A stretch of DNA of 64,000 nucleotides from Trissonchulus latispiculum. Lineage: Eukaryota; Nematoda; Enoplea; Enoplida; Ironidae. Positions 1 through 33,446 of this stretch are shown here, in pieces (positions within the stretch are counted from its first letter, which is position 1; the number at the start of each line of letters is the position of its first letter). The stretch is taken from positions 1 to 64,000 of the forward strand of contig JASAND010000633.1 of assembly GCA_030248195.1 (NCBI GenBank). The letters run 5' to 3'. The translations under genes and the position numbers were made by a program. The notes under the pieces were generated by a model. The model made no database searches. It had not been told where the DNA came from and saw only the letters and a list, made by a program, of their open reading frames with translations.

Positions 1-267
1 GGGGGGGGGTTCAAAATTTTGTAGGTGTGGATTTTCAGAATTTTGGGGGTGGGGAGATTCAGAATTTTGTAGGTGTGGATTTTCAGAATTTTGGGGGTGG
101 GGAGATTCAGAATTTTGTAGTTGTGGATTTTCAGAATTTTGGGGGTGGGGGGGTTCAAAATTCTGTTCAAAATTCTGCGAATTTGGAGGTAATTCTGAAA
201 AAAGGCGAACTGTTTCTTCGCGAATCCGTTTTAAATATCGAGTAAGCGGGCGAGACGAGTCTGACAT
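1..267 (-). pseudogene. 5' end of gag from a second LTR-element copy (runs off the left edge)
   Basis: The minus strand has an ATG at 267, just downstream of an LTR and primer-binding site. The first residues (MSDSSRPLTRYLKRIREE) match the gag start at 24,391 almost exactly. This is therefore the beginning of gag in another copy of the same retroelement family, whose body lies beyond the window. After about 30 codons the frame enters a 48-bp tandem repeat rich in Pro and Asn. The match to the second copy is at DNA level as well and continues through the LTR. I cannot say whether this copy is intact. Confidence 0.7.
10..165. repeat. 48-bp minisatellite inside gag
   Basis: About three copies of a 48-bp unit built from CAGAATTTTGGGGGTGGGGA and related steps. 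Forty-eight is a multiple of three, so on the minus strand it gives a 16-residue protein repeat without shifting frame. A homologous array sits at about 23,955-24,100. Confidence 0.75.
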
Positions 268-276
268 GCTACTCTC

Positions 277-294
277 CTGAAGGAACGGTCGCCA
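277..294 (-). other. Primer-binding site of the left LTR copy
   Basis: On the minus strand the LTR ends TTTACA, then AC, then TGGCGACCGTTCC. A TGG start two bases after the LTR is typical of a site that pairs with a tRNA 3' CCA end. The site at 24,401-24,418 is nearly identical. Confidence 0.6.
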
Positions 295-296
295 GT

Positions 297-875
297 TGTA
301 AAGGGGTTTGATTTGCCTCAACAAAGAAATGAATTTAATTAAAGAAGAGTTGCTAAGTTCGTGAGTGTGCGCATGTCAATCTCATCCCTAAACTTGCTAT
401 CTCCCTAAACGACTACAGCAGACGCCGGCAATCCAAATTCGGTACCGTGAGTTTACTGGGTTTTTATGACAAAATTATAAATTTGACAGAAGTAGAAAGT
501 ATAAACGTTACAGTCCAAAATAAACAAGCACTTTCATAATAATCCAATACGCAAAACAAAATGCACTTCACAAAAATAAAAGAAAGAGGGAATGACCCAA
601 CACCCAACTTAGGAGGGAGCAAAGTCCCCCAACCGAAGACTTACGGAAAAAGGAATTCCCCAACAACGCAGAGATGAGCCCAAGACGCAGCCGCTCCGTG
701 CGAAAGATTTGAGAAGACTGACTTTTGCACCCAGTTTCAATGGCGGACCAATTTAGCTAAGGAACCGAGGTTCCTACACGAGAGTACAATTTTTCATTTA
801 TCGTTCATAAAGATAACACTGCGTTTTGAGTAATTTTAAATGGAAATCAAAGAGAATATCAGAAAATAGTTCACA
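297..875 (-). repeat. LTR shared by two tandem retroelements
   Basis: A 579-bp block starting TG and ending CA that matches 24,421-25,011 along its length with scattered differences and small indels. Its left side carries a primer-binding site and gag start; its right side carries a polypurine tract. It therefore serves as the 5' LTR of the left-hand element and the 3' LTR of the element described here, the arrangement expected after LTR-LTR recombination. Confidence 0.75.
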
Positions 876-880: not shown

Positions 881-891
881 CCCCCTCTTTT
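881..891 (-). other. Polypurine tract
   Basis: Minus strand reads AAAAGAGGGGG followed by TAATC and then the LTR start TGTGAAC. The same tract abuts the related LTR near 43,499. It marks the plus-strand priming site and fixes the element's orientation. Confidence 0.65.
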
Positions 892-3091
892 GAAACGCGC
901 GCCCTCGCCGCGGCCTCCAGGCAAAATTAGTAGCCATAAAATAAGGGTTAACCTACGTAACTTAGGTACTAGTAGAGGTAAAACGTCGTTTTAGTAAGCA
1001 GAAAGAATTAAAATTGTATCTCACTCGAGCCCCTGGCTTTGCCAAATTTTAGGGGTCTGTTTTCGAGACACGGGTAAAGCTACTGCGGCACGTGCCGGAC
1101 AACACACAACCATTAGAGTACATAGACTCAACACAAAAACATAGAACCCTTCGGCCGCGACGGGAGCGCAGGTTCCAAAAGGGAGAGTAACCCGAAAAAA
1201 TTTTAAAGGGCAAAGGGGAAACTCTGTTTCAAACATCACATTACAATAACACAAATTCAAAGCTAGACATTATGGGAACTAGGCGACTATACAGTAAATA
1301 CTATAAATGACTAAACAAAGAAATAAAATTTTAAACCCCAGCTGTATATGAAGAATATAGTATATATAGATGTGCTCCGGGAGAGGCTACACCGGAGGAA
1401 AATTTATAGAAATTTATGAGAAATTGCGCGAAAAGAACGAAAACAGACGCGCACCCAGTCCAGGGAAGCCTCCCCCGGAGTAAACATATTATGCACGAAT
1501 CTGATTAAATGCCGAAATAAAGCTGCATAGAAATAAAGCACACATAGAAATTTAGCTGCACCGACAAAAAATGGCAAAAGTGGCAGACATAAATGGCAGT
1601 ACAAAATTATGCGTAATAAACTCGCGGTACGGTAAACAGTATTAAAAACAAAAACAAAACAGTTAGAAAAAGAGAGTAATATACGACATGTATAGGACGG
1701 ACAAGCCGAACTAGAGGGCACCCGAATAGAAAAATCTCGAAAGAAGTAGAAAGTTTTTCAAAGGCCAATAAAATTTGAAAAGGTGATAATCAAACGAAAC
1801 CCCATGAAGTATAAACTCAAATCAATTCTCCCCCCCCCAACCGGTTAAAGCTAACAGACAAAATAAAGCATAGAAATGGAATGAAAAAACACAACACGAT
1901 TAGAAAAAATGGGAAAGGGGGAGGGGGAGCGGACGAGTAGGGGGAACCGGAATGCACAACTATCACACAATACAGACTGATATAATAAAAGTTATCGAAG
2001 TTTGAAGATAATAGGCCAGGGAGGCCGCCACGAACCATGCCGTCGGGGCGAGACCCCACAGCCACCATCGGACCAACCTCCGGAAGGGGATCGGGCGCCC
2101 CACGGCGCAAGCTGCTCCAGCCCCAAGCCAATCACCAGCCAACCGACTAACCAGGCCCTCCATCACCAATAACCGGGCCAACCCGTACCTCCGGGTCCTT
2201 TTCCAACCACGGAATCCTCCGGGTCCTAACATAAGCATAAGGGACATAAAAATTTCACACAACATATATATAGTAGCAGAAATGGGAACTCGCCGCCAAA
2301 AGGGGACTGGGGGGGAGGGAAGGGGAAGTATGTTATAGTAAACAAAGACAAACAAAAAAGGAGTAAATACGGCATAATATATGGGATTAACATACGGCGC
2401 AGAGGCCTACAGTAGAAAAAATAGCATCATAATATAAGGCACAATGGCCACAGTCACAAATATAAGGCACAGAGGCCATACAGTACAACATAAGGGGCCC
2501 GATTAATTTAAGGAAGAGAGGGCGCGAGCCTACGGCTACTGCAGCCTGGAGAGTATCCAGACAAACAGCGACCGCAGACTGCGCCGAAATCAAGGAAAGC
2601 GAAAAAGATAAACTACGGAATCTAAGATGCCGGTCCGTGGTTGACCGCCCACCCTTGCCCGGCCAGAAGCCAGACACAGGCGACGAGCAACCACGGACCC
2701 GCCGAGATACGGGACGGTAGAACAACCCCAGTACTATTGCAAATAAAAAGTTAAAAATAAAATTTTGATAAAATAGAGTAAGTAGTCATATACGGGATAA
2801 AAAAATAAAAGATGTGTAAGAATTCGCAAAATTTAAATCGCTTTGAAAAGAAGACGCCACTTTTTATTGAAACGTTGAAAACATGAGAATTCAAGTAAGA
2901 GGATACTTTTATCAAAAGCAAGGAAATCGTCTTCAAAAGAAATAATCAAATTTGTTTCAGAAGAATAAATGTTAAACCACACATAAACATAGAGGACAAA
3001 TCCCCCCAATACAGAAATCAATACATAGCAACAATACCCCCCACGTACGGGCCACGCAACTATCCCACCCCACCACATACACAGAAAACAA
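892..3091. other. 3' non-coding region of the retroelement
   Basis: About 2.2 kb, A-rich on the plus strand, between the last gene and the polypurine tract. Short open stretches exist but have no recognisable motifs or shared frame. The part nearest the LTR (about 890-1,000) is alignable with 43,495-43,620, including a shared stretch around CTTAGGTACTAGTA. I see no gene. Confidence 0.55.
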
Positions 3092-3751
3092 TTACACAGG
3101 TGCAGGTACTCTCATAGCCTCCCGGAGGTGTTGCTCAGCCTCGCGGACTGCCAGCTCATGAGGGAGCTGTGGGAAAAGTTCCCGCCGGACGATCATGCAG
3201 ATTTTACCCATCCAATTCTGCCCTTTAGGGTTTTCGGCAGTAAGGACTTCACGGCGGCGGGCCGGTGGCATAGCCTGAAGTTCCAAGGCATCGTAGCCAC
3301 AACTCCAGTAGGAGTCACCAGGCACCGCTTCAATCAAATAGGCCACGCCGGTGTCGTGCAACCAACGGCGAAACTGAGGGCAAGAGGCCGCCTTGGCCCG
3401 GATGACATCAAGCATTATGAGTGCTCGGATCAAGGAACCCGGACCCGTTTTTGCGTGCCACATTTGACGCAAGGCGGATTCTCTCGGAATCCATTTGGCC
3501 ATAAATTCCTCAGCCAAATATTTGGCTTGGAAGGGGCACTCCATGGAGGCCACGACCCGGGCGGGTCCCTTAAGGCCAAAGAAGTCCTCGAACTTGCGCC
3601 AATGGTACAGCTGTTCAGAAGTACCAAATTCGTCCTCACCCCACTGAATGTAGACGGGGTCCTGTGAATTAGACAGAGGATCAGGTTGAACGATCCACAT
3701 ATTGGAGGCCATAGCACCAGGGCCTTTGAACCAGATAACCTGGCGGTTCAT
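3092..3751 (-). CDS. NADAR (YbiA-like) domain protein inside the retroelement
   Basis: A 219-codon frame with its own ATG. What I see: TSEQLYHWRKF with Glu46 in the family's conserved early motif, MAKW around 84-87, TGVAYLIEAVPGDSYW with Glu141, Asp146 and Trp149, Gly152, and NWMGKICMIVRREL with Asn179, Gly182 and Arg189. The order and spacing fit NADAR. Known family members include bacterial YbiA and enzymes that remove ADP-ribose from guanine in DNA. The frame lies directly downstream of a TGA at 3,785, in the same frame as the upstream accessory ORF, so it may once have been the C-terminal domain of a larger protein. Length suits a stand-alone NADAR. Catalytic competence is inferred only. 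An anti-host-defence role is speculation. Confidence 0.75.
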   Translation of the reverse strand: MNRQVIWFKGPGAMASNMWIVQPDPLSNSQDPVYIQWGEDEFGTSEQLYHWRKFEDFFGLKGPARVVASMECPFQAKYLAEEFMAKWIPRESALRQMWHAKTGPGSLIRALIMLDVIRAKAASCPQFRRWLHDTGVAYLIEAVPGDSYWSCGYDALELQAMPPARRREVLTAENPKGQNWMGKICMIVRRELFPQLPHELAVREAEQHLREAMRVPAPV

Positions 3752-3784
3752 CGCAGCTTTATGAGCCTGATTATGCGAATGGGC

Positions 3785-8349: not shown

Positions 8350-9048
8350 TCACCAATAAGAAGTGTCCGACCCGAAGGCTGGGTGTAGCGGACGAGGGTT
8401 TCCTGGTACTCCAAATCTGGTGTTAGTGGTGACTCCTGAACCATGATACATCATGGTAAATTCTCCACGGTGAAAGACACGCGGAGCCTGTTGACCACAG
8501 GTTGGACAATTGTCTATTCGAGCAAATTCTGGAGAAATAGGCCTGGAAATATACCCCTGTGGGGTTTGATGCAAGGCAATTATATTTGGGACTCCGGGAG
8601 GTGGCCGTGTGGGCGGCGGTCGTGGCATAACGGGACGAGGCACCAAATAAGGATGCACGCGCCCAACAGGTATTGGGTACCTGACCACAATATGAACCGA
8701 AGTCCCTTGAGGAGGCGCACCCGGACGGACCACTCGCGGAGCAAAGGGCGGCGAAAAATTTTGCATGAAATGTCTTGGAGGGGTAAAGTCCCCGATTGGT
8801 TGTCTCGGTCGAATAGGGATAGGATAGGAATGTTCCTGGAAAAAATTAGGGCGAACATGTGGTGCCCTCTGGAGAATTGGCAAATTTGGCAAGGAAGAAG
8901 ACGCCGAAATCGTGGTAGTGACCACCGGAGCAAAATTTCTTTCTACTGGAAGAGCAGGCGGAGAATTTTGATTTACAACTTCAATAGAAGAATCATGGTC
9001 CGAGACCACCTCAATCGCTCGAGAGACAGATGGAGACTGATCTGACAT
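8350..9048 (-). CDS. CxxC protein, copy 2 (related to copy at 9,336)
   Basis: A 232-codon frame with an ATG at 9,048, preceded about 80 bases upstream on the minus strand by a pyrimidine tract and AG that could be a splice acceptor. The first 165 residues are Pro-rich. The C-terminus has CPTCGQQAPRVFHRGEF and then SDTSYW. The upstream neighbour has the same order: CSQCGQPAARSYQRGD and then SDVSFW. The stop TGA at 8,350 falls where the neighbour has Arg, and the codons beyond still match (WD....CLRP), so it is probably a recent nonsense change. CxxC may bind metal; the role is unknown. Confidence 0.55.
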   Translation of the reverse strand: MSDQSPSVSRAIEVVSDHDSSIEVVNQNSPPALPVERNFAPVVTTTISASSSLPNLPILQRAPHVRPNFFQEHSYPIPIRPRQPIGDFTPPRHFMQNFSPPFAPRVVRPGAPPQGTSVHIVVRYPIPVGRVHPYLVPRPVMPRPPPTRPPPGVPNIIALHQTPQGYISRPISPEFARIDNCPTCGQQAPRVFHRGEFTMMYHGSGVTTNTRFGVPGNPRPLHPAFGSDTSYW

Positions 9049-9335
9049 TTGAAATAATTCCTTGAAAACGTACAGACCGACGGCACTGCTGGGCTCACCA
9101 GAGGAACACTGGAAGGCAATTTGGATTACCTAAACAAAATATAAATTCAGTAAAATTTCATGGAATCTCAGGAAAACATGTTAAACCTTTTCAAATAAAT
9201 TTTTTAGAAATAAGCCCCTGATCATGCGAAATAAACAAATAATACAAATCAATTAGTATAAAAACACAACTTAAGAAAACAATGCGTACGTACTACACAT
9301 AACAAAAACTACAAAACCAAAATTATCTTAACCCT

Positions 9336-9896
9336 TTAGGAGATAGGGTTTTGAGGACGGAGACATCTATCAACAGGGTCCCACCGCCAAAACGAGACAT
9401 CCGAAACTATGGCTTCAGCCAAAATACGAGAGTTTTCTGATGGGTTCGAATACGGTGACCCGGTGAAAGTTTCATCGAGAAAACCAGGGGGGGTTGACAT
9501 GAAAATATCCCCTCTTTGATACGAACGTGCTGCCGGTTGCCCACACTGAGAACAAATACCCGGACGAGCATAACGCGGAGAATCTGCTACTAACCGGTGG
9601 CCCCACGGTAATTGAAACAGAGTAACAGTGCAAGCATTTACGGAGCCTCCCGGTGGTAACAGTGCAGGGAAACGAATAGTGTTAGGAGCAGAGGGTGCAC
9701 CAGCCCGGGGAGCAAGCGGAGGAGGAGCAAGGGGAACCGAAACCGAGGGAACGTAAGTTTGAACTTCTCTTGAAAGTAAGAAAGGATGAAAATTTGATGG
9801 TAAAGAATAACGCGTAGGGGACCTCCTAGCCCCGGTAGGACAACGAGGTTGCACATGCCCATCTTGAAAAAATATTCGAATCCATGTTTTCTTCAT
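9336..9896 (-). CDS. CxxC protein, copy 1
   Basis: Chosen start is the ATG at 9,896, giving about 186 residues; the frame is open further upstream but without an ATG. The start overlaps the 3' end of the protease frame (ends 9,826) in another frame. It has a Pro/Ala-rich N-terminal half, then CSQCGQPAARSYQRGD, a Ser/Pro stretch, SDVSFWRWD and CLRPQNPIS at the end. The tandem copy at 8,350 shares this layout, so one arose by duplication within the element. The single CxxC pair could make half of a zinc site. Function unknown. Confidence 0.55.
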   Translation of the reverse strand: MKKTWIRIFFQDGHVQPRCPTGARRSPTRYSLPSNFHPFLLSREVQTYVPSVSVPLAPPPLAPRAGAPSAPNTIRFPALLPPGGSVNACTVTLFQLPWGHRLVADSPRYARPGICSQCGQPAARSYQRGDIFMSTPPGFLDETFTGSPYSNPSENSRILAEAIVSDVSFWRWDPVDRCLRPQNPIS

Positions 9897-11240
9897 GGCA
9901 CTGAAACACGATTTGCTGGTCGTCTTGAACCTTTTGCTGCAGATATGTGTCGAAGGGAGAACCTTCCCGGAGTGGAGGGTTCCCCATACGTGCGTCAACA
10001 GCAAAAAGCAAATCGCGCGCAAATTCGTCTAAATGAACTTGAGCTGGAGTAAAAATATTGAGGTCACACAAAACAGGTTCCCGGGCGGAATAATCCCGCA
10101 CGGGGGTAACCGACCCAAGTACTGTGGCCTGTGGAATGGTAATTGGAGATGGAGTAGGGTTTACCATTAGAAGTTCGAAGAAATTTTCCAAAATTTGAAC
10201 CACCCCGGCATAAGGTAAAATTTTATGTTCAGACAATAAAGATTCCATAGGGTCGAAAAAGCACAGTGGTCCCCGAACAGCGGAGGAGGTTTGAGCCTGC
10301 GCCCAAACCTCCGAGGTGGGAGGTACCACTACATCCACTGCCATCACAGCCGGAGTTTCGTCACACCAATTTGCTAAACATTCCGCACTAATATCAACCG
10401 CCGAATGTAGGGGGTGGCGTATGCCTTGCATGTTAACCTCATTCGACGAAAATAGCAAATCCCACTGAAACATTTTCATGAAATCGGTGCCAATTAACAT
10501 ATCCCGGTAGAATTCGGGTGCCATATGAAAAGACCAACCGTATTCTTTGCACCCCACAGTGAAAATAACAAAAACTTTGGCTGAAATTTTTAGGGGGGCA
10601 TCGTTTGAAGTAACGGCAGTGATGGGGTCAGGGTGGTCAAAACGAACCTCCGCCCCACTGGCTAAACTTCTTTGTACCGTTCGGGGACTAATGATAGAAA
10701 TTGACGCCCCGTAATCTATAATTGCCAAAATTCTTGCGGCCCCAGATGTTACTAAAATAGCGGGCATATTGTCCGCTGCCGCTAGTACCTGTTCAGATTC
10801 AATTCCCGCGGAGGCCCCCGGAGTCACTGCTACGGAAGCTAAATGGCCAGAAACAGGGTTTTCCTTCTCTTGTACGGTGTCAGTGACGGTCGGCTGTTCC
10901 GTCTCCGTGCCCAATGAGACACTCTGTGCCTGTACTGACTGGGGAGGGGGCATCCCCCCGAGAACCGGAGAAAAACCCGCGGCCCAAGTAGGAGGTGGAT
11001 GTTTTTCAACAAACATGATCGAGTCGTATTCCGATTGGTTAGGACATAAACGTTTTAATAAAAGAGCCATTTCGCGCTTTTGATTAGATAAAGCATAGTG
11101 ATACTCTTGCATAAAGTTATACGTATCTCGATGAATTGCCTGTAGATGGGTCAAATTATGGACTACTTTTGAAAAAAACACTAGACAATTGGGCTTCTGA
11201 CATTGACAAATCGAGATGTCGAGAATCAAGTTCAGTGGAG
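9826..11240 (-). CDS. Retropepsin (gag-pol type protease) region
   Basis: The frame contains ILAIIDYGASISIISPRTV, the retropepsin catalytic loop, and about 90 residues later MLIGTDFMKMF, the second conserved segment. The family motif is D-T/S-G; here it is D-Y-G, which may reduce or abolish activity. The C-terminal 180 residues resemble the spacer that usually links protease to RT in Gypsy elements, but the frame stops and a CxxC gene follows. The frame is +1 relative to gag and overlaps its 3' end around a run of seven T (11,163-11,175 region). The upstream half of the open stretch, to 11,769, is a shadow of gag. Confidence 0.65.
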
Positions 11241-12659
11241 ATTGAAAGTGCCTCCGGACTAGGCCGGAGGGGCCTTTCCCCCCACGGAGCAGGACCGCCA
11301 CCTGGCCGGGCTGACACCATAGAGACTTGAAATTGACTAAACATCTGATTTGCTTGTTGTAGAGTGACTCCGGTGGAAGGGGGAGCTGACCCACCCGAGG
11401 GAGGGGCAGCTTGAGCTCCCACTCCCGAATCCGACGCAGGTACAAAATTTTGTGACAACTCCGGGATACCAGCATTTGCCATGACAATACGCTGATACGG
11501 AGTTGGGGAAGTATTTTGAGTTTGAGCAGGAGTGGGGTGAAAATTTTGAACCGGGGCTTGGGGTGCCTGTTGGCGGGTAGGAGCAAACTGGGGTTGAGGA
11601 GTGGAAGATGGAGCAGAAAATTGAGGTGGTTGGGGGTTGGGCTGAACACGAGCATACTGTGTAGACGGAGGAGGTGGTGTATAATTAACGGGTTGATAAT
11701 ACTGTTGTTGATTCGCTGGTGGCTGATATTGAGAGGAATAACGCGACTGATTGTAAGAAACGTGGTCAATTCGTTCCGGAAGGGGGCGAGTTTTGTAGTC
11801 GGGAGGGGCTTTAGAGGGATATCTTTCCCAGCATTTTTCGGGAGGGTGACCCCGTTTTTTACAATACCTACAGGGGTCGGAAAATTTCTTACGTTTTTCT
11901 TCGTCCCATTTGGCTAAGGTTTCCTGGATGTGTTGCTCGAACCAGTCCTTCATCTCTCGGAAACCAAGGCGGGAGGCAGCGACTTCTAAATTTGCCTGTG
12001 AGGTAGAATCTGAGGTTTTCTGGTTCTGAGATCTATTATCAGAACCGCCTTCTTCAACATAGTAGATAGGCAAATCATATGATAAGGTGTCGCCCTCCGG
12101 AGCCCTGGCTTCGCGAGACTCCAGACGGTCAATGATGCGACGCACATCCTGCATGGTCGGGCGTTCACTCTGGTAGAGGGAGGCCAGTGCAAGGGCGAAC
12201 TTGTCATGGACTCCGGCAAAAAGTTGTTGAACGCATTGTTCTTCCCTTTCCTCCTGGGTGTCCCACAGGTCGAGGGCCATAGCTTGCAGTTCGGAGATAT
12301 AATGACGAACAGATTCATTATGAAGTTGTTTTCGGTGAGCAAAAGCAGAAAATCTGTCACGTAGAGAGAGTTGAGGTTTTGGAAATTGAGATTTTATCAA
12401 TTCAAGAAAACCGGTATATGACTCTACGACCTGTGGGTCACAACGGGAGGCGAAAATTTGAGCTTTTCCGGAGAGTTTGTTCCAGAGAAGACTGGCTCTC
12501 CGGGACCGCATGAACCGCCACGGCCGATTCGAATTGGGGAAGCCAATCCTCAAAATAAGCATATTTTGGGTCGTAGCGAGGTACCTCCCTTAGAACTTCG
12601 AGATAATACCGGAAAAGACTAGTGTCAAATTTGGGGACAGAAATGTCCGTTGGTTGCAT
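11156..12659 (-). pseudogene. Gag capsid-nucleocapsid region
   Basis: Begins at an ATG at 12,659 (MQPTDISVPKFDTSLFRYY) and changes frame once near 12,500. The main 468-codon part has a retrotransposon gag domain (LLWNKLSGKAQIF ... RDRFSAFAHRKQLHNESVRHY ... ALDLW) over about residues 20-150. A zinc knuckle CRYCKKRGHPPEKC follows (Cys231, Cys234, His239, Cys244 of that frame), and then a Gln/Pro-rich tail to the stop at 11,156. Order and motifs fit Ty3/Gypsy gag. The frameshift near 12,500 suggests a non-functional copy. Confidence 0.7.
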
Positions 12660-14145
12660 GGTTTCGGGAGTGGGGTGACGAGAATTTTTGGGTGTTTTTG
12701 ATTTTTTCCCACAGTATGCACCGTATGAGAACTTTGATTTGAAAAAGATGAGGGAGTAGGAGGGGGACCCGGAGGAGGTGGAGAAAGTGATGTTTGGAGG
12801 GGCGGCGGTATATACGTACACATCTGTTGTGGACTAGAAACTGGCGGAGAAGTGGTAGGTGCCGGGTTTTGGGGGGTGTTGCCCCCCGAGGGTTCCTGTC
12901 CAGCAGGGAGGGGGCACTGCGTCCTTGCCCTCCCATAAGGAGGACACAGACGAGTGTTGTCCCCGCTGCTGGGAGGCCTCACTAAGGCTGGGCGGGCGAT
13001 TCTGAGCTACATAATCGGTTACACAAGCATGAGAGGCAACCATATCGGCCAAATAATATGGATTTACAGGGGCCTGTTGGGGTACGTATGGAGGTACCCG
13101 GAGGGGCGGAAGGTTCTGCTGAGACCCCTCCCACAAATTGTTTCTATCTAGTTCGGCGACCACTGGATTCTGAAAAACCTGCTGTTCTAGCCGGTCATAT
13201 TCAAAATTTGCGGGTGTACGTATAAAGTATTGCCCCTCCGGAAACTGTTCGTTAGGGGGTTGGTAGCGGAGTTGGGGGATTTGCTGTTGATGTTGATCAG
13301 GAGCCGCAATTTGGGCACCTTCATAGAGATGTTGCCCATAAGAACGGGGGTGAATCGAAAAATATTGGGGGTCCTGATTATTTATAAAACTATATTGAGA
13401 TTTGGGGAAGCTAAAGGGGGATTTTGAGTGCTGGGGTGGGGGACTTGTAGAGGAGGGGGTGAAGGGGGCCGTGTATGATGTAATTTTGGTGCGGAGGGGC
13501 CCCCGGTGCAAACTGGGGTACAATGAACTGAAATATGAGAAGGAGCCGTAGCTCGATCTGGTAGAGGATTTCCATATTGATCCCGCGGAATGACAAAGCC
13601 GCCCAAATGAGACGACTGGGGGGCTTGTAAATTTATCGGCGGTACATACGTATTTTTCTGAAAATCCGCCACCGAGGCTGCTGGGATGCTATGTGGAATT
13701 TGGGTGTTGGGTAGGTAATTAGGCTCTGGGGGGTGGTGCCCCCCACCAAAATTCTGCTCCAAGTACGATGCGGGGGTGTTATGATTTGAGCCTCCCCCGT
13801 CAGACAAAATGCCCGAATTTTGACTGTGCGCCGAATTGTAAACAGACCCATTTTCTGAATGAGCAACATTTCCCCCGAATTTTGCTGAAAATTTGGTCCC
13901 GTAGAAGGTGGAGGGATCCCATTTTCGCCCCGCCGGGAAAGTGTCCCGACAACATCGGACGGACCCAAAACATTTTGCCCAAAATTTTGTGAAAAATTTG
14001 GGTCCATGGGAGGGGGGCAGGAGCCGTTTCCAACCTGCCGGGAGAGTGTCCCGACAACATCGGGCGGACCCTGAGGAGACCGGAGAGAATACGTACGTTG
14101 GGGGGAAGGGGCTGTAGCCCCACCTTGGGATGTTTGAGGGGGATA
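12660..14145 (-). pseudogene. Gag proline-rich N-terminal region, part 2 (degenerate)
   Basis: Overlapping open stretches in at least two frames encode Pro-, Gln- and Ser-rich sequence (for example QPPNEQFPEGQYF and VPPYVPQQAPVNPYY). They are continuous with the gag part on the far side of the 9.1-kb insertion. Two similar blocks at about 13,897-13,972 and 13,996-14,073, sharing TGTCCCGACAACATCGG, are an internal duplication. Frame changes indicate decay. Confidence 0.5.
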
Positions 14146-14189
14146 ATAATGGGTATGTCACATTATAAGTCGCAACAAGTGCAGAAGGT

Positions 14190-14520
14190 TTCTGAGAAAG
14201 TGGCTAATTTGTCTAGACATATTTCTAGACATTTTTTCATATTTCGAGACAAACTTTCTAGACAAATGTCAACTTTCGAGACATTTTTAAAATATTTCGA
14301 GACATTTTGAAAATATTTCTAGACATTTTAAAAATATTTCGAGACATTTCGAAAATATTTCGAGACATCCAGAACTATTTCGAGACAAAAATGTCTCGAA
14401 AGTTTAGAAAATGTATCGAAACATAAAAGTTTGGAACGTTTTCTCGAAAGTTTGCAATTTTCTCGAAAGATGTCTCGAAAGTCCGAAATGTCTCAGAAGT
14501 TTGAATTTGTCTAACAGTTG
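14190..14520. repeat. Subterminal TTTCGAGACA repeats, left end
   Basis: Dozens of copies of (T)TTCGAGACA/TTCTAGACA and their complements, partly palindromic, with irregular 20-30 bp spacing. The mirror block is at about 22,905-23,230. Such arrays often bind transposase, but nothing here proves it. Confidence 0.65.
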
Positions 14521-15003
14521 CATAAATTATTTCGAAAGTATGATTTATGAAGTATATTAAACTGACTGAAACTTTTAACTGTGTTTGAAACTTTTGGTAC
14601 AACATATTTTATTTATAAAATCTGTATCTAAATTTGGCAATAAACGACATGGTGCAATATCCCTTCCCTTGCACCAGTATTTGCGGCCTCTCCTCACACA
14701 GAAATGTGAGACCGCACCCAGCCCGCACCAGTGCCGCAGCCCGCGCTCACATTTTGGCCCGCACAGGGCAGACCCGCTGCCCGCACTAATAAAACTGTCC
14801 GCGGCTACCCGCAACTAAATTTAACGTTTCAAGTATTACACAGCATTAAATAATTACTACTTTCATTGATTTTCTTTGATTTCCCAAGGAAAACTATCAT
14901 ATAAGAACGTTTGCCGTTTCTTAAAACGTTCATAGCTGCAGTTGTGAGTTTTTAGAATTGTTATTGTATTATTTCTGGGAAACGTTTGTCTGTTTGTACG
15001 CGG

Positions 15004-15293
15004 TAGTGATGTTTCAGACACTGAAACTGAAACTGAAACTAGGTTTCAGTTTGCACAGGTTCTGAAACTGATACTGGAACTGAAACTATTTTGGGAAGAG
15101 ACCTGAAACTTAAACTGAAACTGAATTTTTTCAGGCTGCCGACCGAAACTGAAACTGAGACTTATTTAGAAAAAAACTGAAACTCGGACTGAAACTAGTT
15201 TCAGTCTTTCCGTAAAATGTGAAATTTTGGAGGTTTTGAGCTTCGATTTTGTTAATATTGCTGCAGGGGAGGCCGAATATACATTTAATTGTG

Positions 15294-15371
<78 letters not shown>

Positions 15372-15512
15372 TCTTAAGGCTGGAAACCGTTTTTTATAGT
15401 GAACTAATACTGAAACTGAAACTATTTTGGTCCGCCGACTGAAACTGAAATTATTTCTTTCCGGCGACTGAAACTGAAACTGAAACTAAGATTGGCAACT
15501 GAAACAACACTA
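15004..15512. mobile_element. hAT-like non-autonomous element with TGAAAC repeats
   Basis: Ends read TAGTGATGTTTCA and TGAAACAACACTA, inverted with one mismatch. The 8-bp duplication GTACGCGG precedes the left end (14,996-15,003). On the right it reappears only after a later TRIM insertion is removed (G at 15,513, then 16,300-16,306). TIR form and 8-bp TSD are hAT hallmarks. The interior is mostly CTGAAACTGAAACT repeats plus an AT microsatellite. A longer relative is at 58,652. Confidence 0.8.
15297..15370. repeat. (TA)n microsatellite
   Basis: About 37 uninterrupted TA steps inside the hAT-like element. Confidence 0.95.
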
Positions 15513-15513
15513 G

Positions 15514-15799
15514 TGTAGCGCTTCTACCAGGGCTGGCGGATCAGGAAGAAACCAAGGACAAGCCCGAACGGGAGGCGTCAGGCACCCTCGTACCCACGAA
15601 ACCAGGACCTAGAAGAGAGAAGGGAAGAGGGAGGTTCAGCTTTTCACTCACCATTGAAAGTAAAGAATTGGACCAGCCGGGTTTCGAACCACGGCCCTTC
15701 TGCTCCGGAGTCAGACATGCTAACCAACTACACCACAGGACCATCAGCTGAACTCCCATTGCAGGCTTATCAATCTTTCCTATGCCTGCTTCCCTTACA
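15514..15799 (-). repeat. TRIM 3' LTR
   Basis: 286 bp, TG...CA ends, identical to the other LTR except inside the tRNA-like segment. The polypurine tract GGGGGAGA (minus strand) occupies 15,800-15,807 next to it. Confidence 0.8.
15670..15742 (-). tRNA. tRNA-like segment of the 3' LTR (degenerate, loop CTCCGGA)
   Basis: A 73-nt segment with tRNA layout on the minus strand. Acceptor GGTCCTG against CTGGTCC has two mismatches. The D region is GTGTAGTTGGTTAGCAT, the anticodon loop CTCCGGA would give CCG, and the T loop is TTCGAAA. Similarity to tRNA-Gln body sequence (GGTCC start, GGTTAGCA) suggests origin from a Gln tRNA. Acceptor damage makes a functional tRNA unlikely. Confidence 0.5.
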
Positions 15800-16009
15800 T
15801 CTCCCCCGGGTTTCAATTAAGACGCGTCCCGCGGCTTACTCAACTCGGAATCAAACCGAGAGCGCATCCAGCGCAGGGCATTCTGAGCCCAAGGGATCCG
15901 TGCTCCCCCGACACACGTTCCAGACCCCTTTAGATCCAACCAACCAGAAGCAACTACTGGGGGACCGGATACAGGAGTCCAATCCGGGTCCTGAGGCAGC
16001 CTCGCCACA

Positions 16010-16295
16010 TGTAGCGCTTCTACCAGGGCTGGCGGATCAGGAAGAAACCAAGGACAAGCCCGAACGGGAGGCGTCAGGCACCCTCGTACCCACGAAACCA
16101 GGACCTAGAAGAGAGAAGGGAAGAGGGAGGTTCAGCTTTTCACTCACCATTGAAAGTAAAGAATTGGTCCCGCCGGGGATCGAACCACGGCCCTTCTGCT
16201 CTAGAGTCAGACATGCTAAACCACTACACCACGGGACCATCAGCTGAACTCCCATTGCAGGCTTATCAATCTTTCCTATGCCTGCTTCCCTTACA
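16010..16295 (-). repeat. TRIM 5' LTR
   Basis: 286 bp, TG...CA ends. The primer-site candidate is at 15,995-16,007 on the minus strand. Confidence 0.8.
16166..16238 (-). tRNA. tRNA-like segment of the 5' LTR (anticodon CTA)
   Basis: 73 nt on the minus strand with a perfect 7-bp acceptor (GGTCCCG/CGGGACC), D arm GTGT...GCAT, and anticodon arm TCTGA-CTCTAGA-GCAGA with one A-G mismatch. The T loop TTCGATC sits on a stem that needs a bulged U. The anticodon would be CUA, which reads the UAG stop codon. The body resembles tRNA-Gln. Stem defects mean it may be only a pol III promoter-bearing tRNA relic. Confidence 0.55.
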
Positions 16296-16531
16296 CTAGT
16301 ACGCGGATTTCACGCAATCGGAAAGTTTCATGAGGATTTCTCTGGAGGCTGGCCACGATCCCCATGGTGTTTCCCATGCGTTTTCTAGTCGTCCACGATG
16401 GCAAACAGTGAAGATTTTGGAAAAAACGTTTTAGGAATTTCATAAAGAAATCTCCATGTAAATTCTTGTATTGTGGATTGGCTATAATCATGGCAACAGA
16501 AAAGTGCAGTTATGCAGTTGAAGATTACATC

Positions 16532-17510
16532 TTAAAATGGTGGTTTCCTTTTGTGTAAATTTGACCAGACAAGCTCCAATTCTTTATGAAAGTAGTTGAA
16601 ACTTTCTAAATATACTATGTGGGTGCTCTTTAACATTCTGGGACCAGTCCCGCATTATTATGTAAAAAGATGAGAAACTCAAGGGTTTTTAGCATTATAC
16701 TCTCAGTAGGCAGTCGGAAAAAAGGCACAAAAATGAACATTTTTACTTTTATAACCTTCGAGCTATCGAGCGGTTAAGTCAGTAAACGCCAAAACGATTT
16801 GGGGGGTCAAAAAATGGCCATTTTCGAGGAAGTCAGTTTATTCAAAGTTGCTGCCAAATCGTTCGGACAAGTTTGGTTTATTGATACTAAACTAGATAAC
16901 TAATTGCACATTTTATCGTGCTCATTAGTGGAAGACCGCAGTTTTAAGCTAGAGATTTTGCAGAAAAACCAATTTGGCAAAACTGCGATTGTTTTGTTTT
17001 GAACATCGATTTCTCAAAAACTATCCAATGGATTCGCGTGATTTGGGGCAGGGCAGGAGGAAAATTCGCACTATTACGGAGAGATTATTTCTTTGTTTCA
17101 GCTAAAACATCTCCAGTTGCGAGAAAAGATGCAAAGATGCGAAATTTCGTGTTACCGCACATTTGGCGGATTTTCTGGAGCATTAAGACCTGTTGAGCCA
17201 AATCCGAAAAAATAGCCCTCTTCCCACACGTCCTGCATATCGTAGGACCAAATAAACTTTGGCCGATTCTACAGTTTTGAGAAATCTATGTTCAAAAACT
17301 TTTGCTCTATATTCAGCCTTGTTTCAGAAACGTTCTGCTAAGTTGTTGCTAATTTTGCTATTTTCGTAAGCTCGTGTGAATGTACTGATTTATAAGCTTA
17401 AAAATGGTGTATACAGCCCTTTCCAACTCCCAAAACTGCGAAAACTATAGCGATTCAAAGAATTACCTCAAAAGTAGATACTGCACAAAAGTATACCACC
17501 ACCACCTTAA
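16532..17510. mobile_element. TTAA-flanked repeat, GGTGGT family
   Basis: TTAA at 16,532 and 17,507 bracket about 970 bp whose ends are imperfect inverted repeats (TGGTGGTTTCCTTTTGTG against TGGTGGTATACTTTTGTG). TTAA targets suggest a piggyBac-like MITE. Related partial copies, inverted, are at 27,916-28,103 and 46,400-48,384. No protein gene. Confidence 0.6.
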
Positions 17511-17858
17511 GTTTACGGCAGTAGCCTGTGTCCATGTAAGAAAAATATGATTTTGATTCGTTTTCTGCGACCCAGAAACCCTTACCCTTAAAAAGACTGT
17601 GTAACAAAATCCAGTAACATAATACATAAACTTTACGAATCAAAACTGAATCTCGCTAAATCCAAAACAACTAGAGCGGTCATAAAGAGACGTAATTTGC
17701 CTAAATTTAGTGCACTCGGAAAAGTGAATTTTTCTATATATAAGCATTGGAGAGGATCAAATGATTCAAATGAGAAAGTTGGCTGCCTTATTTATATGCT
17801 AATTAGTTAATTACCTACCGCTACCAGCGAGTTCATTGCTGCAAACTTAGAAAATTGT

Positions 17859-18869
17859 TTAAGGTGCTGGTTCGGGTTCGTGTATTTTTGAACTTTAAAA
17901 GCGCAATTCTTGTTGAAATTTATTCAAATTTGCTACAATTACATTATTTAGCCTGTAAAACATGCTAGAAAAGTCGCGGCTTGAAAATTTGAGTTTTTGA
18001 AAAATTTGCTTTAATCCGCCATAGCTTGCACTGTGGCCACCCTATATGGATGAACTTATAATCATTCGAATCCTCTCACCAAGACCTACAACTTTGCTCT
18101 TGAGCATATTCTTCGATTCCTTAAGGTTTAAGAGATAACAGCGAAAATTGATTTTCGAGGTCCAAAACCGGCCATTTTTCGAAAAATCAAATATTGCAAG
18201 ATTTCGACAGCTTCAACGGCGCTGGTCCGAAGGTCAAGTATTGTCCGTATTCGTAGTCCTAAGGGACATGCTAAGTCCCAAGAAGAGCTCTCTGCGGCTT
18301 CTCTGAATACGTACAGCAGCGAAAATGTGAAATTTTGAAAATCGCAACCAGTTTGCTTTGAACACGGATTTCTCTCAACTCATGCAAGCAATTCGAAAAC
18401 GGCCTTACACCCGCATTTTTGAGACAATTGCCGAGGGCTATTTTTCATGGTTTTTCGTTTTGTCTTTCAGTTCGAGAGAAATAGGCGTCCAAACTTGAAA
18501 ATTTTGACGAAAATCGGACAAAATTTACGTTTTTCTCAAAATCTTGAGCTTCTTTACTTGCTAAACAATTTCAGAAAAATTAGCCCTCGGGAAGACATTT
18601 CCTTTGAAGCCTGAACTGGTCGCTTTTCGCTAGCTTTCCCACACTTCGAGAAATCCATGTTCAAAAATTGTTTTCATGTTATTGCAAGTTGTTGTTCAAA
18701 TTTCATGTTGTTCAAGTCGAAGAGTTGAAATGAGACTGTTATGATGTACCTAGTTGTAACAAGCACATTCTAAGCTTTAAAATGATATAAAAATTATCGT
18801 TGAACTCCAAAAATTGAGCGAATTACAGTCTTTCAAAGTTTGCTGCAAATACCCGAACCAGCACCTTAA
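17859..18869. mobile_element. TTAA-flanked repeat, GGTGCTGG family
   Basis: TTAA at 17,859-17,862 and 18,866-18,869 enclose 1,003 bp with inverted ends GGTGCTGGTTCGGGT / ACCCGAACCAGCACC. The interior shares short blocks with the neighbouring 16,532 element (for example around GAGAAATC.ATGTTCAAAAA), so the two are probably old relatives. No gene. Confidence 0.7.
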
Positions 18870-20417
18870 ACGAAGTTTCGGTTATTTTGTTTGACCATCT
18901 GTATTTCTGCAAAATTATCTAGAGAATTTGTGTTATTTGTGTGGTGGCGAGATTTTAACTACTTCGGTGAACCATCGTTTTTAGTTTGTGATATAAATTC
19001 TGGACTTGCACTCACGAGAAATTTCGTGTTAAAGTGTATTCTAAACACTGCCCGTTTTATGTACAGGCCGCCAAACTCCAAGCTCGGTTTTAAGCACTGA
19101 CCGCCGTATCAAATCTTAGCAATGTCCCTCATCGTACGTGTTTCGTTCTGTGTGTGTTATTTGTTCCATTCCTTTATCTATAAAAATACATTAATTCCTG
19201 TCCTATGGCTACTAGGATTGTTTTTCTGTCCACAGAATAAATTACGAGTATGAAACTTTTACACAATTAGCCCATTTTATACTACCCCCTATTTGTCATT
19301 CATTATGTCGAAAACGTCCATACAGTCCCCACGCAAAGATTGCACATTCTTCACAACGTTGCCATTAAGTCATTGAAGAAAGATACAAAGCTATAGGCAG
19401 TTTGATTTTGCGAAATATATCTTCCCACAAAGACGTCTTGTCATCATAAATGCGTCAAATGAATTTCTAGGGAGTAGTTCTATTCGTATTAAATTACTGC
19501 TTAGTGCTTGTCTTATCACAGCAGTTATTATGTCTGCTACTAAAGTAACCTTTGGCCTCATTCCAAAAGGTCTGAAAGTCTTAGACGAAGGCACTTGCTA
19601 TAAGCATCTCTGTTCGTGTGTTTAGGTCTGTCTTAACCCTTTTCCCAGCTATGTACTTATTACTTAAATTAGATCTAAAGTTTTAGATTTCAGCAAAAAA
19701 TATTAAAAATTTGTGCTACTGTAACATAAGAAAACCGGTTTTCGGAAAAGTGGCCCCGATTTGAGCTGGTGACCCGTGACCCGGTTCCATCGCTGCTGTG
19801 CAATTCCCCACGACCAGGCATACCTCTGAGTGAAACATCATTTTTAGGTATCAAAATGCAGCTTACGTCTGCAATCTTTTCCGGTTCAAATGGAAAATTT
19901 TAGCGAGTTTTTTAAACTGAAGTCGGACGGTTGTTGATGAATTTCGCGTCAAACTGCACAGGGTGCACATGTTAAGGAAACGAATATTTGAAGTATCACA
20001 AACTATTAGTATTTGGTACTTATTTCAATAGACTGCAAATTGTAGGTTTTCAAAAATTCAATGAAAGTTTTTTAAAAATCTAAGTAAAATTCTGATTATT
20101 ACAGATTTCAGTTCGGAAATGCAAGAAAGTTGCAATAGCATAGAATAGCATTCATTCGCTAGAGTTTCTGGGTGCACGCAAAAAATAAATATTATTTGAT
20201 ATGCCTATGCCATGGTGGTGAGTTGGAGACATGAACTGGAATAATGGCGCGAATCTTTCAGATTTTTTGCGGACAGAATAAATTTTTCGCGGGACAGAGG
20301 TTATATGATCCGATACCCCTATCCAATAGCTGGAGCCGTTTTTCTAGTTGCTAGGAAATTCATTCACTCTGTTGCAGAACCGCAACCTGAATTCTCGGTT
20401 TTGTTAATGTCAACTCT
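18870..20417. other. Unassigned AT-rich DNA
   Basis: About 1.5 kb with only short open stretches, no coding motifs and no repeat I can align within the window. Confidence 0.4.
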
Positions 20418-21925
20418 GTAGCTAAAGTCTGACCACAAAATCTTGGTACCGAACGGTGAGCGCCTGTCCTGATTTACAACATTTGAAGGTGGCCCATATA
20501 AAGTTATATTTTTAGAATCCTCAAGAGGAGGAGAATCCGCTAAACCCACAAAAGGTATCTGGTCTGTATCCGGTTAGCGGATACTAAATCGATAAAAACG
20601 CTTCAGATTCGGTAAGAAAATGCTAATTAATCCATACTCTATTATGTTGGTCCTTGGCCAAAAACATTTCAGAAAATCGGATCATCCGGTCCATATCCAG
20701 TAACCTGATGTGTAGGTTACAAAAAACCGCACAGCAATATGGTTTGGTCGTACAGCTTCGCTAATTGGAGTTTTGAATTTCTCGGGTCGAAATTATTCGG
20801 TATACAGAATCTTGTCTAGTTTAGACCAAAACTGCGTGATCTTAGTTGTAGCCGGTTCAAAAAAACGGAAATACTGGTATTTCCAGTCTGGTGCTCGGAT
20901 AAAAATGCTGGTTTTTAGCACAATGAATGCTTGGGAGGCTAATTGGTCTATCAACGATATTTGGTCTATACCTAACAAGTTGCAAAATTCAATTTACTTC
21001 ATATCTGTTTTAATGTTTGAATCATAGCGTTTTAAAGATGATTCAAAAGTAAGTTAGGTATCGTGCATGCGACAAAGATAAGAGTATGGACTGCGCGGTC
21101 CCCTGATTTCGCCTGCGCAATGCGCGGTCCCCCCAGAAATTAGGGTATACCTGCTACATCCCCAGTACACCCCTTGCGCATGTATGTTGAGGTTTAGGCT
21201 TGCTAGGGATAGACCAACTATTAATTTAATGAAATAATTTAATTTACGGACCAACCGGATACTGAGATAATAGTCCATGAAATCTCAAATTTCAAAGCTC
21301 ATGGAAATGAAATGACTGAAAAAAATGAAGCTCATGTAAATGAAATGAAAGAAATTGACTGGACATTCGATTGCTTTAAAACCGGTAAAATGAAAGTAGC
21401 CTCCCAAACATTCAATGTGCCAAAAACTAACATTTTTATCCGCGATTCCCAGCACCAGACAGGAAAAACCAATTTTTCTGGTTTTTTGCGAATCGAATAC
21501 AACCCTAGATCACGCAATTTTGGTCCAAACCCGACGAAATTTTGTATACAGTGTAATTTTGACCAGAGATATTCAAAGTTCCAATTAGCTAAGCTGTACG
21601 ACCAACCGATATTGCTGTGCGGTTTTTGTATCAGGTTACCGGACATGGGACCAGATGTTATCCGATAATCGGAAATGTTTTGGGCCAAGGACCAACATAC
21701 AAGAGTATGCATTATATAGTTAGCTTTTTCTTCCGAATCTGAAACGTTTTTCGATTTAGTATCCGCTATCCGGTTAGCGGATACTATGGGTTTAGCGGAT
21801 TCTCTTCCTCCTGAGGATTCTAAAAATATATACTCGTACTTTATATAGGCTACCTTTAAATGCTAACTCATGACAGGTGCTCACAGTTCGGATCCAAGAT
21901 TCTTTGGTCAGACTTTAGAAAGTAG
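20418..21925. repeat. Foldback element with long inverted arms
   Basis: Arms of about 530 bp (20,418-20,945 and 21,392-21,925) are diverged inverted copies, separated by about 450 bp. Clear matches include GGTTAGCGGATACTA, GATTCT/AGAATC around CCTC.AGGAGGA, and AGTCTGACCA against TGGTCAGACT. A fragment of the right arm recurs at 25,012-25,085. No coding potential. Confidence 0.65.
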
Positions 21926-22184
21926 CGATTGGAGAAACTAAAAAATGTTAAATGAAACCCTTCAGCTTGTACAATGTACAATTTCTAATGATTGTTGTCT
22001 GAATTAACCATTTCAAAGGGCACTCAAAATTGACTCAATCCCAAACCTTCCCCTTTTCTAGTAATTCTGTCTTTGACAGTAAACGCACGTCAATAACTCA
22101 AACCACAAATAACAAGCCTATTTGCATGAACGGATTGCCGCTGCTTTTTTCCTCTACAGAAAGACATATCGTAAGTTGCGTAAG

Positions 22185-22655: not shown

Positions 22656-22904
22656 CGCAAGCCTCCAAGTCAAGCCCTTCAAAATGAGGTATCACCCACC
22701 CCTCTACTCCTTTCCAATCTCGAGATCTGGGTCTGAAACAGAAATCCGGAGAATAAAGAAGAATTATAATAACGGATATAAACAAATTAAAGGGTTGCCT
22801 TTTTTGGTAAAAAAGCGGCAACCCAATAATCATATCAATGAGCAGATAAAAGCTATGATCAAGCAAAGATATGTTTCGAAGATTCCTGTTTGTCTAAAAT
22901 GTTG

Positions 22905-23230: not shown

Positions 23231-23273
23231 CCTTCTGCACTACCTGCGACTTATAATATGACATACCCATAAT

Positions 23274-24391: not shown

Positions 24392-24400
24392 GCTACTCTC

Positions 24401-24418
24401 CTGAAAGAACGGTCGCCA
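24401..24418 (-). other. Primer-binding site of the main LTR element
   Basis: Minus strand TGGCGACCGTTC starts two bases after the LTR's terminal TTTACA. Complementary to a tRNA ending GGTCGCCA. Confidence 0.6.
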
Positions 24419-33438: not shown

Positions 33439-33446
33439 ATATTTAA

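What the first reader, a model, noticed from the sequence alone, without database searches (positions are those of the whole stretch)
3092..3751. NADAR (ADP-ribosyl-guanine hydrolase-like) domain carried by an LTR retroelement
Seen: a complete NADAR motif set (Glu46, Glu141, Asp146, Trp149, Asn179/Gly182/Arg189) at the 3' end of an element bounded by LTRs, primer site and polypurine tract. Known: NADAR proteins related to YbiA can reverse guanine ADP-ribosylation, and RNA viruses use macrodomains to counter host PARPs. Inference: a retroelement may use NADAR to erase host ADP-ribosylation of its nucleic acid. I know of no described retrotransposon with this gene.
Basis: partly seen in the sequence, partly recalled or inferred. 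Interest (0 to 1): 0.88.

Follow-up and report, generated by a model that had tools for sequence, protein, structure and literature searches.

The report
NADAR-carrying giant Gypsy retroelement
A very large virus-like jumping element in an animal genome carries, in many copies, a conserved enzyme-like domain whose relatives strip ADP-ribose tags off DNA and RNA, so it may help the element erase a chemical mark put on its genes by the host.

Summary
The window copy is old and broken. Other copies in this 734-Mb genome show the design: a ~21-kb Ty3/Gypsy element (RT closest to Ty3) with gag-pol, four or five small unknown ORFs, and a 1,599-1,671-aa last ORF ending in NADAR. One copy has 99.5% identical LTRs. 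150 of 1,082 candidate places were scored; all matched, and 118 lack stops in the matched stretch. Median dN/dS of NADAR is 0.07-0.09 in 40 copies, chosen with a bias to intact ones. So it is a maintained gene, not a chance capture. The novelty claim fails: NADAR in Gypsy elements (Ectocarpus) and Tx1 LINEs (oyster) was printed in 2025 (PMC12477816, passages). What appears new is a giant animal Gypsy with NADAR in a separate 3' ORF, in a genome with many other NADARs. Removing guanosine ADP-ribosylation is the best mechanism, untested; substrate and host writer are unknown.

The parts
3095..3784 (-). NADAR domain, C-terminal end of the last long ORF (Pfam match at about 3176-3685)
   Evidence: Pfam PF08719 E=1.3e-14; catalytic residues
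3092..7995 (-). Last long ORF (about 1,640 aa in intact copies), here interrupted by three in-frame stops and a frame change
   Evidence: nucleotide match to copies C15541 and C3457 at 82-83%
8350..9129 (-). Small ORF of unknown function, upstream of the long ORF
   Evidence: counterpart ORFs in L022 and L025; no Pfam match
9336..9864 (-). Remnant of another small ORF of unknown function, fused to the pol deletion junction
9864..14142 (-). gag (CCHC knuckle) and protease part of gag-pol; RT, RNase H and integrase are missing from this copy
   Evidence: match to L021 4902-594, 87%; gag and protease matches below Pfam cut-offs
14143..23270 (.). Later insertion(s) splitting gag of this copy
   Evidence: flanking halves are contiguous in copy C15541 (L021 586/594)
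23271..24392 (-). Start of gag, with a tandem-repeat-coded N-terminal part
24409..24418 (-). Primer binding site TGGCGACCGT (tRNA-Arg-type; the tRNA name is recalled)
24421..25011 (-). 5' LTR (TGTGAAC...TTTACA)
881..892 (-). Polypurine tract just before the 3' LTR
297..875 (-). 3' LTR, shared with a following copy
1..296 (-). Primer binding site and gag start of the next copy, cut by the contig end

Best explanation
This is a broken copy of an abundant, diversified family of giant Ty3/Gypsy-type retroelements (~21 kb) in an animal genome, with at least one recent insertion. Their last ORF (1,599-1,671 aa) ends in a NADAR domain of the YbiA type. SHOWN by sequence: element anatomy, many copies, presence of the domain in at least three lineages, a strongly purifying codon pattern, and near-complete conservation of catalytic and ligand-binding residues in the sampled copies. 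INFERRED: the NADAR is an active ADP-ribosyl N-glycosidase, delivered as the C-terminal domain of a large accessory protein, that removes ADP-ribose from guanosines of the element's own RNA or cDNA (or of host RNA it needs), undoing a host guanosine ADP-ribosyltransferase that would block reverse transcription, translation or integration. Confidence is about 0.95 for the anatomy and selection, about 0.75 for an active enzyme, and about 0.45 for the counter-defence role as stated.
For: Copy C3457: LTRs 99.5% identical (2 mismatches and 1 gap in 597 columns), apparent 4-bp target duplication ACAG, and a 1,641-aa frame ending in NADAR. In one search, 150 of 1,082 candidates were scored, all 150 matched, and 118 of 150 were free of stops in the matched stretch. 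The C6724 copy has one 2,289-aa gag-pol frame with RVT_1 1.7e-28, two RNase H models, Integrase_H2C2 1.8e-13 and rve 3.5e-13; its RT is nearest Ty3 in the PDB (4ol8, 1.8e-87). dN/dS of NADAR within the two sampled lineages has medians 0.069 and 0.085 (190 pairs each); ten disjoint pairs per lineage give 63 nonsynonymous to 228 synonymous and 93 to 358 single-change codons. NADAR has lower dN/dS (0.01-0.08) than the rest of its ORF taken together (0.08-0.16) in 4 of 4 within-lineage pairs. E57, E152, D157 and N190 are kept in 42 of 42 sampled copies. NADARs are reported to reverse guanosine ADP-ribosylation of DNA (PMC11543638) and RNA (PMC11833690).
Against: No activity was measured. The lineage typified by C1925/C6945 has Met in place of the phosphate-binding Lys in 2 of 2 copies, and the one copy scored falls just below the Pfam cut-off (31.8 versus 35.1). 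The NADAR scores 49-56 bits in the other lineages, against 124-150 for the other NADARs of this genome scored, so it is divergent. No DarT was found in the genome, and searches for PARPs never got an answer, so no host writer is known. Intact copies were favoured in sampling for dN/dS. The lower dN/dS of NADAR than of the rest of the ORF comes partly from higher synonymous divergence there: pN itself is lower in NADAR in only 2 of 4 pairs, and some upstream blocks of the ORF are as constrained. Noncoding sequence just after the ORF differs less between copies (median 15.7%, 19 copies) than NADAR synonymous sites (33.6%), unexplained. LTR pairs of three copies with intact long ORFs are only 71-84% alike, unexplained. 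The young copy C3457 has its gag-pol in several frames, so whether it is complete is open.
Confidence: 0.45

Rival explanations
1. The NADAR is active but serves RNA processing or small-molecule clean-up instead of counter-defence: for example hydrolysis of soluble ADP-ribose derivatives, or processing of the element's RNA intermediate, as proposed for the Ectocarpus elements.
For: Authors of PMC12477816 suggest RNA-intermediate processing (passages). PMC9503650 (passages) proposes soluble substrates for viral NADARs in general and phage ones in particular. YbiA is an N-glycosidase on riboflavin intermediates (PMC11543638, passages).
Against: PMC9503650 itself favours macromolecular ADP-ribosylation as the target of NADARs in eukaryotic RNA viruses, the nearer analogue. 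NCBIfam's riboflavin N-glycosidase equivalog cut-off is not reached (51.0 versus 73.7). NADARs tested in PMC11833690 were inactive on RNA phosphate-end ADP-ribose.
Confidence: 0.27
2. The domain is a binder or scaffold: it reads ADP-ribosylated partners or RNA, or engages host RNA machinery (cap complex, spliced-leader machinery) as the three-NADAR protein SNA-3 does in nematodes, without needing hydrolysis.
For: SNA-3 is a NADAR protein of trans-splicing in C. elegans (PMC9303266, abstract and passages). One lineage has lost the phosphate-binding Lys. The multi-ORF 3' half needs some way of being expressed.
Against: The catalytic residues are kept (E57, E152, D157 in 42 of 42; W160 in 41 of 42). 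Mutating such residues impairs SNA-3 too (PMC9303266). Whether this host trans-splices was not tested (the SL1 search, got no answer).
Confidence: 0.2
3. A cellular NADAR gene was trapped by chance in one element, or lies beside it, and has no role in its life.
For: The window copy alone is broken and old (LTRs 74-76% alike).
Against: 150 matching places of 150 scored, 11 of them in stop-free frames of 1,599-1,671 aa; lineages at 53-63% identity to the window domain; domain inside LTRs with an apparent target duplication; dN/dS 0.07-0.09.
Confidence: 0.02
4. The apparent purifying selection and LTR mismatch reflect gene conversion, recombination among copies, or assembly smoothing of a repeat family, so that age and constraint of single copies cannot be read.
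For: C6724 and C6316 interiors are 91-95% alike while LTR comparisons between and within them are 71-81%. Synonymous divergence is higher in NADAR than in the rest of the ORF in 3 of 4 pairs, as a mosaic would give.
Against: This does not by itself produce a codon-specific pattern: synonymous sites differ at 34-42% while nonsynonymous differ at 3-5% within the two sampled lineages.
Confidence: 0.06

Closest known systems
Ectocarpus Gypsy lineage with NADAR (Gypsy-12_Ec32 and kin; PMC12477816, passages read)
   Same: Gypsy retroelement lineage in which all families keep a YbiA-type NADAR domain.
   Different: [quoted passage not shown] here it is the C-terminus of a separate long last ORF of a ~21-kb element in an animal. 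Sequence relationship between the two NADARs was not tested.
Tx1 LINE elements of Crassostrea gigas (ORF1; PMC12477816, passages read)
   Same: Animal retrotransposons with what appears to be a NADAR domain in a non-RT ORF.
   Different: Non-LTR elements; the domain is in ORF1 (that ORF1 lies upstream of RT is recalled).
Burro giant Gypsy elements of planarians (PMC6431247, passages read)
   Same: Gypsy-type, thousands of copies, internal region over 20 kb, host-interaction domains beyond gag-pol.
   Different: Burro extra domains (BIR, BCL2-like, ankyrin, dUTPase-like, env-like) sit largely in one giant ORF1; no NADAR is mentioned in the passages read. Here there are four to five small ORFs plus a long NADAR ORF after pol.
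NADARs of animal plus-strand RNA viruses (nidoviruses, hepe-like, picornaviruses; PMC9503650, passages read)
   Same: RNA-based replicons with an embedded NADAR proposed to counter host ADP-ribosylation.
   Different: No reverse transcription or integration; NADAR tends to be in the polyprotein with the RNA polymerase.
E. coli YbiA and DarT1-linked NADARs (PMC11543638, section 12 and passages; PMC11125620, passages)
   Same: Same catalytic residues; 27% identity to YbiA for the window domain.
   Different: Bacterial proteins of about 160 aa or in toxin-antitoxin operons; here a domain with an insertion of about 20 residues before the N-x-x-G motif, at the end of a 1,600-aa protein.

Membership tests
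Ty3/Gypsy LTR retrotransposon | Paired LTRs (TG...CA) with short target duplication | tested here: met
   C3457: 597-column LTR match at 99.5% and ACAG on both sides if the LTR ends at TTTACA; target duplication read for that one copy only, not evident for C6316 or C6724 in the same output
Ty3/Gypsy LTR retrotransposon | Primer binding site after 5' LTR and polypurine tract before 3' LTR | tested here: met
   TGGCGACCGT after the 5' LTR of C3457, C15541, C6724, C6316 and the window copy; AAAAGAGGGGG before the 3' LTR of C3457, C6724, C6316 and the window copy
Ty3/Gypsy LTR retrotransposon | gag-PR-RT-RNaseH-IN order, RT of the Ty3 type | tested here: met
   C6724 copy; RT best PDB match Ty3 4ol8 1.8e-87; PR and gag matches are below Pfam cut-offs
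Endogenous retrovirus / errantivirus | env glycoprotein | tested here: inconclusive
   No Pfam match to an env in the ORFs after pol; no strongly hydrophobic segment in 12 of 13 ORFs checked; in the exception (L021 8769-9983) both segments lie before the Met I take as the likely start
Giant retrotransposon (internal region over 20 kb, PMC6431247) | Length | tested here: met
   C3457:26638-47880, internal ~20,050 bases (computed)
NADAR superfamily (PF08719) | Profile score above curated cut-off | tested here: met
   Window 55.2 bits; three further copies 49.3, 55.4 and 55.7; one copy of a third lineage 31.8, below 35.1
NADAR superfamily (PF08719) | Catalytic/ligand residues (E, K at +7, W, E, D, W, N, G) | tested here: met
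   42 copies; exceptions: K is M in 2 of 2 copies of the third lineage; one copy each departs at W109, W160 and R200, three at G193
YbiA subfamily of NADAR | Glu (not Asp or His) in the last strand | tested here: met
   E152 in 42 of 42, aligned to YbiA E125
Riboflavin-intermediate N-glycosidase (TIGR02464 equivalog) | Equivalog cut-off | tested here: not met
   51.0 versus 73.7
Guanosine-ADP-ribose hydrolase | Activity on ADP-ribosylated guanosine | not testable with these tools
   needs protein

The most novel reading that the evidence does not exclude
In this animal, several unrelated classes of mobile element have each taken up NADAR because the host attacks retroelement RNA or cDNA by ADP-ribosylating guanosines, an anti-transposon defence not yet described in animals as far as I know; the Gypsy NADAR is one side of that arms race, seen as strong constraint within lineages and faster change between lineages than in RT.
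Probability: 0.17. Interest if true: 0.92.

Novelty: new variant of a known kind. Interest (0 to 1): 0.6.

Why it matters
It shows that a retroelement family in an animal has kept an ADP-ribose-processing domain, with its catalytic residues, in many copies and at least three lineages. With the algal and oyster cases in print this makes NADAR a recurrent retroelement accessory, parallel to macrodomains and NADARs of RNA viruses. It makes a sharp question testable: do animal hosts mark retroelement RNA or cDNA by guanosine ADP-ribosylation? The genome's many other NADARs offer a natural system for it.

Tried and rejected
Rejected: chance capture of a cellular gene. Rejected: an independent 220-aa gene; it is the end of a long ORF. 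Led nowhere: single-sequence AlphaFold2 model of the window domain (pLDDT 37.8, not used). Protein searches of 5.8 billion proteins gave no match: the domain (193 candidates, E<=0.001), the long ORF of C6724 (7,984 candidates sharing most words scored, E<=0.01), a 12-copy alignment (5,824 candidates, E<=0.01). Viral contigs gave none (4 pattern matches, none confirmed). PDB sequence search with the domain, the long ORF or the 12-copy profile gave none, although YbiA finds two NADAR entries. DarT was not found in the genome at E<=0.001. Not answered because the machine was busy: PARP, COX1 for naming the host (30, 40, 54, 58, 65, 72, 78, 80, 86), SL1 RNA (87), the ORF of L066 (74); two searches were also busy, and their questions were answered later. 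So host species and host ADP-ribosyltransferases stay unknown. One search had five of 42 sequences in the wrong orientation and ended in an error; one search replaces it.

Sampling told: dN/dS used 42 of the 150 scored places. They were the 20 best matches (four of them with one stop), 20 stop-free full-length copies that I chose from the group at 58-63% identity, and 2 of the group at 53-57%; the group near 75% was not sampled. Gapped codons and stop codons were skipped. C6316 was left out of my reading of the RT comparison because of a frame change.

Full report
WHAT WAS CLAIMED.

THE DOMAIN. The frame 3092-3784(-) matches Pfam PF08719 (NADAR) with 55.2 bits, E=1.3e-14. NCBIfam's riboflavin N-glycosidase model matches at 1.8e-13 but under its equivalog cut-off (51.0 of 73.7). 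The unnamed phage family phrog_1017 matches at 1.5e-16. A profile of 12 copies aligns to E. coli YbiA with probability 92, and the window domain is 27% identical to YbiA in the alignment. It is divergent: neither the domain nor the profile finds a NADAR chain in the PDB by sequence. The glutamates, lysine (+7), tryptophans and aspartate that bind ADP-ribose or act in catalysis in studied NADARs (PMC11543638, section 12 read) are all present. In 42 sampled copies: E57 42, E152 42, D157 42, N190 42, W109 41, W160 41, R200 41, G193 39, and K64 39 plus one Arg; the two copies of a third lineage have Met there. E152 marks it as YbiA type by the criterion quoted in PMC11543638 and PMC11125620.

THE ELEMENT IN THE WINDOW. 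On the minus strand: a 5' LTR (25011-~24421), primer site TGGCGACCGT, gag start (24392-23271), a 9.1-kb insertion (23270-14143), the rest of gag and protease (14142-9864), a deletion junction that removes RT, RNase H, integrase and the first small ORFs (about 4.5 kb relative to copy C15541, 5.9 kb relative to C3457), two small ORFs, the long ORF (~7995-3092) ending in NADAR, a polypurine tract (892-881) and the 3' LTR (875-297), followed at once by the primer site and gag start of another copy. The long ORF of this copy is interrupted by three in-frame stops and a frame change. LTR-to-LTR identity is 74-76%, so by itself it looks like an old insertion.

OTHER COPIES. The host genome (unnamed, 733.8 Mb in 21,732 contigs) is taken to be an animal's on the evidence of a degenerin/ENaC-type gene at 60872-62158 (Pfam ASC; that this family is animal-specific is recalled). 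A protein search with the domain found 1,082 candidates, of which 150 were scored; all 150 matched, 118 had no stop in the matched stretch, and 11 stop-free ones lie in frames of 1,599-1,671 aa (my count from the listing; some matches are partial). Stretches around seven copies were read in some depth. In C3457 two LTRs match over 597 columns at 99.5% with 2 mismatches and 1 gap, flanked by ACAG on both sides if the LTR ends at TTTACA; the element spans C3457:26638-47880 (about 21.2 kb, internal 20.05 kb). Its gag-pol falls in several frames, so I do not claim that it is complete. In C6724 one 2,289-aa frame carries RT, RNase H, zinc-binding integrase and integrase core, and the RT-RNase H is nearest Ty3 among solved structures (4ol8, 1.8e-87). 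After pol come four (C3457) or five (C6724) small ORFs, mostly about 180-250 aa from the likely Met, without Pfam matches where tested, then the long ORF. The long ORF gives no Pfam match other than NADAR at E<=1 (apart from a sub-threshold DUF3291 match in C15541), and the C6724 version gives no match at E<=0.01 among the 7,984 best candidates of 5.8 billion proteins.

SELECTION. Pairwise dN/dS (Nei-Gojobori) of the NADAR has median 0.069 within the main lineage (190 pairs of 20 copies, median dS 0.45) and 0.085 within the second (190 pairs of 20, median dS 0.61); between these two lineages 44 of 400 pairs had unsaturated dS, with median 0.128. Pairs share sequences, so one search used ten disjoint pairs per lineage: 63 nonsynonymous to 228 synonymous single-change codons in the main lineage and 93 to 358 in the second, against about 78% nonsynonymous expected without selection. 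Sampling favoured intact copies (20 best matches; 20 chosen stop-free), which can make the estimate lower than for all copies. In four within-lineage pairs the NADAR (0.05, 0.08, 0.05, 0.01) has lower dN/dS than the rest of its ORF (0.13, 0.16, 0.13, 0.08). This must be read with care: synonymous divergence is higher in NADAR in 3 of these 4 pairs, and pN itself is lower in NADAR in only 2 of 4; blocks elsewhere in the ORF are as constrained. Also, the 600 bases after the ORF differ by a median 15.7% between 19 copies while NADAR synonymous sites differ by 33.6%, which I cannot explain; constraint in the 3' region or mosaic copies would do. RT has dN/dS 0.033 for C15541-C3457 and is 91-94% identical between lineages, where NADAR is 53-63% identical to the window domain: the NADAR keeps its core but changes faster between lineages.

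HOW IT MOST LIKELY WORKS. Shown: a Gypsy-type element with a recent insertion keeps an intact NADAR as the C-terminal domain of a large accessory protein. From the literature: NADARs remove ADP-ribose from guanosine in DNA (PMC11543638) and are reported as the only hydrolase family that does so on RNA, YbiA included, while inactive on phosphate ends (PMC11833690, passages). Guanosine-modifying transferases exist in animals (pierisins of butterflies, CARP-1 of a clam; PMC11543638, passages and reference titles). Inference: the domain cleans guanosine ADP-ribose from the element's RNA or cDNA, or from host RNA it needs. Against it: no activity data, no known writer in this host (DarT not found; PARP search unanswered), and loss of the phosphate-binding Lys in one lineage. 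Rivals are RNA or metabolite processing and a binding role like that of nematode SNA-3 (PMC9303266, abstract and passages).

NOVELTY. [quoted passage not shown] Literature searches on NADAR with retrotransposon (20 of 104 rows seen), NADAR domain (15 of 15), DUF1768 (6 of 6), two of six NADAR/YbiA/transposon terms (10 of 6,686) and NADAR with Gypsy (2 of 2) showed no other retroelement case by title or start of abstract. The library is open-access only. A giant Gypsy in an animal with NADAR in a separate 3' ORF is therefore filed as a new variant of a known kind. Burro elements (PMC6431247, passages) are the nearest that I found in size and in carrying host-interaction domains.

THE WIDER GENOME. 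A search with the Pfam profile gave 2,478 candidates; the 150 scored have 124-150 bits, in frames of about 140-300 or about 550-730 aa, many with identical scores. The Gypsy NADARs (49-56 bits, or 32 in the third lineage) cannot be among them. So this genome holds many other NADARs, probably in repeat families. I read only 731 bases beside one of them (L066, a further 205-aa frame), so what carries them is unknown. If they are other mobile elements, NADAR uptake was repeated here, and the bold reading (a host defence by guanosine ADP-ribosylation) gains weight.

UNEXPLAINED. Three copies with intact long ORFs (C15541, C6724, C6316) have LTR pairs only 84%, 71% and 78% alike, although C6724 and C6316 are 91-95% alike inside. 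Recombination between copies, fast LTR turnover or assembly joins could do this; I could not decide.

Confidence in anatomy and selection was lowered from 0.97 to 0.95 because the pN/pS detail and the 3' comparison had been left out.

Noticed in passing
whole genome G000: 150 scored NADARs of other kinds (124-150 bits) in frames near 140-300 and 550-730 aa, many with identical scores, suggest further NADAR-carrying repeat families.
   Followed up: partly
L036/L025, L035/L022, L037/L029, L038/L031: LTR pairs 99.5% alike in one copy but 71-84% in three others whose long ORFs are intact; interiors of two of these are 91-95% alike.
   Followed up: partly
L032 4231-4896 and L033 4809-5474: A third lineage has Met in place of the ADP-ribose phosphate-binding Lys of NADAR.
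   Followed up: partly
L001-L020, 3' side of NADAR: Noncoding sequence after the ORF differs less between copies (15.7%) than synonymous sites of NADAR (33.6%).
   Followed up: no
window 29707-39775: Polinton-like element: DNA polymerase B, integrase with chromodomain, A32-like ATPase.
   Followed up: no
window 15514-16295: Two 97% identical ~286-bp units 496 bp apart, each with a tRNA-like sequence (Arg CCG and a CTA anticodon), inside the insertion that splits gag.
   Followed up: no
window 1-170 and 23928-24097: 24-base tandem repeat units code a proline/asparagine-rich N-terminal part of gag.
   Followed up: no
L028 7325-7945 and 8064-8663: Two small ORFs after pol share a WWTIK-SK-DP motif and look like duplicates; two later small ORFs (window 8350-9129 and 9336-10028) share a C-x2-C and an SDxSxW motif.
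   Followed up: no
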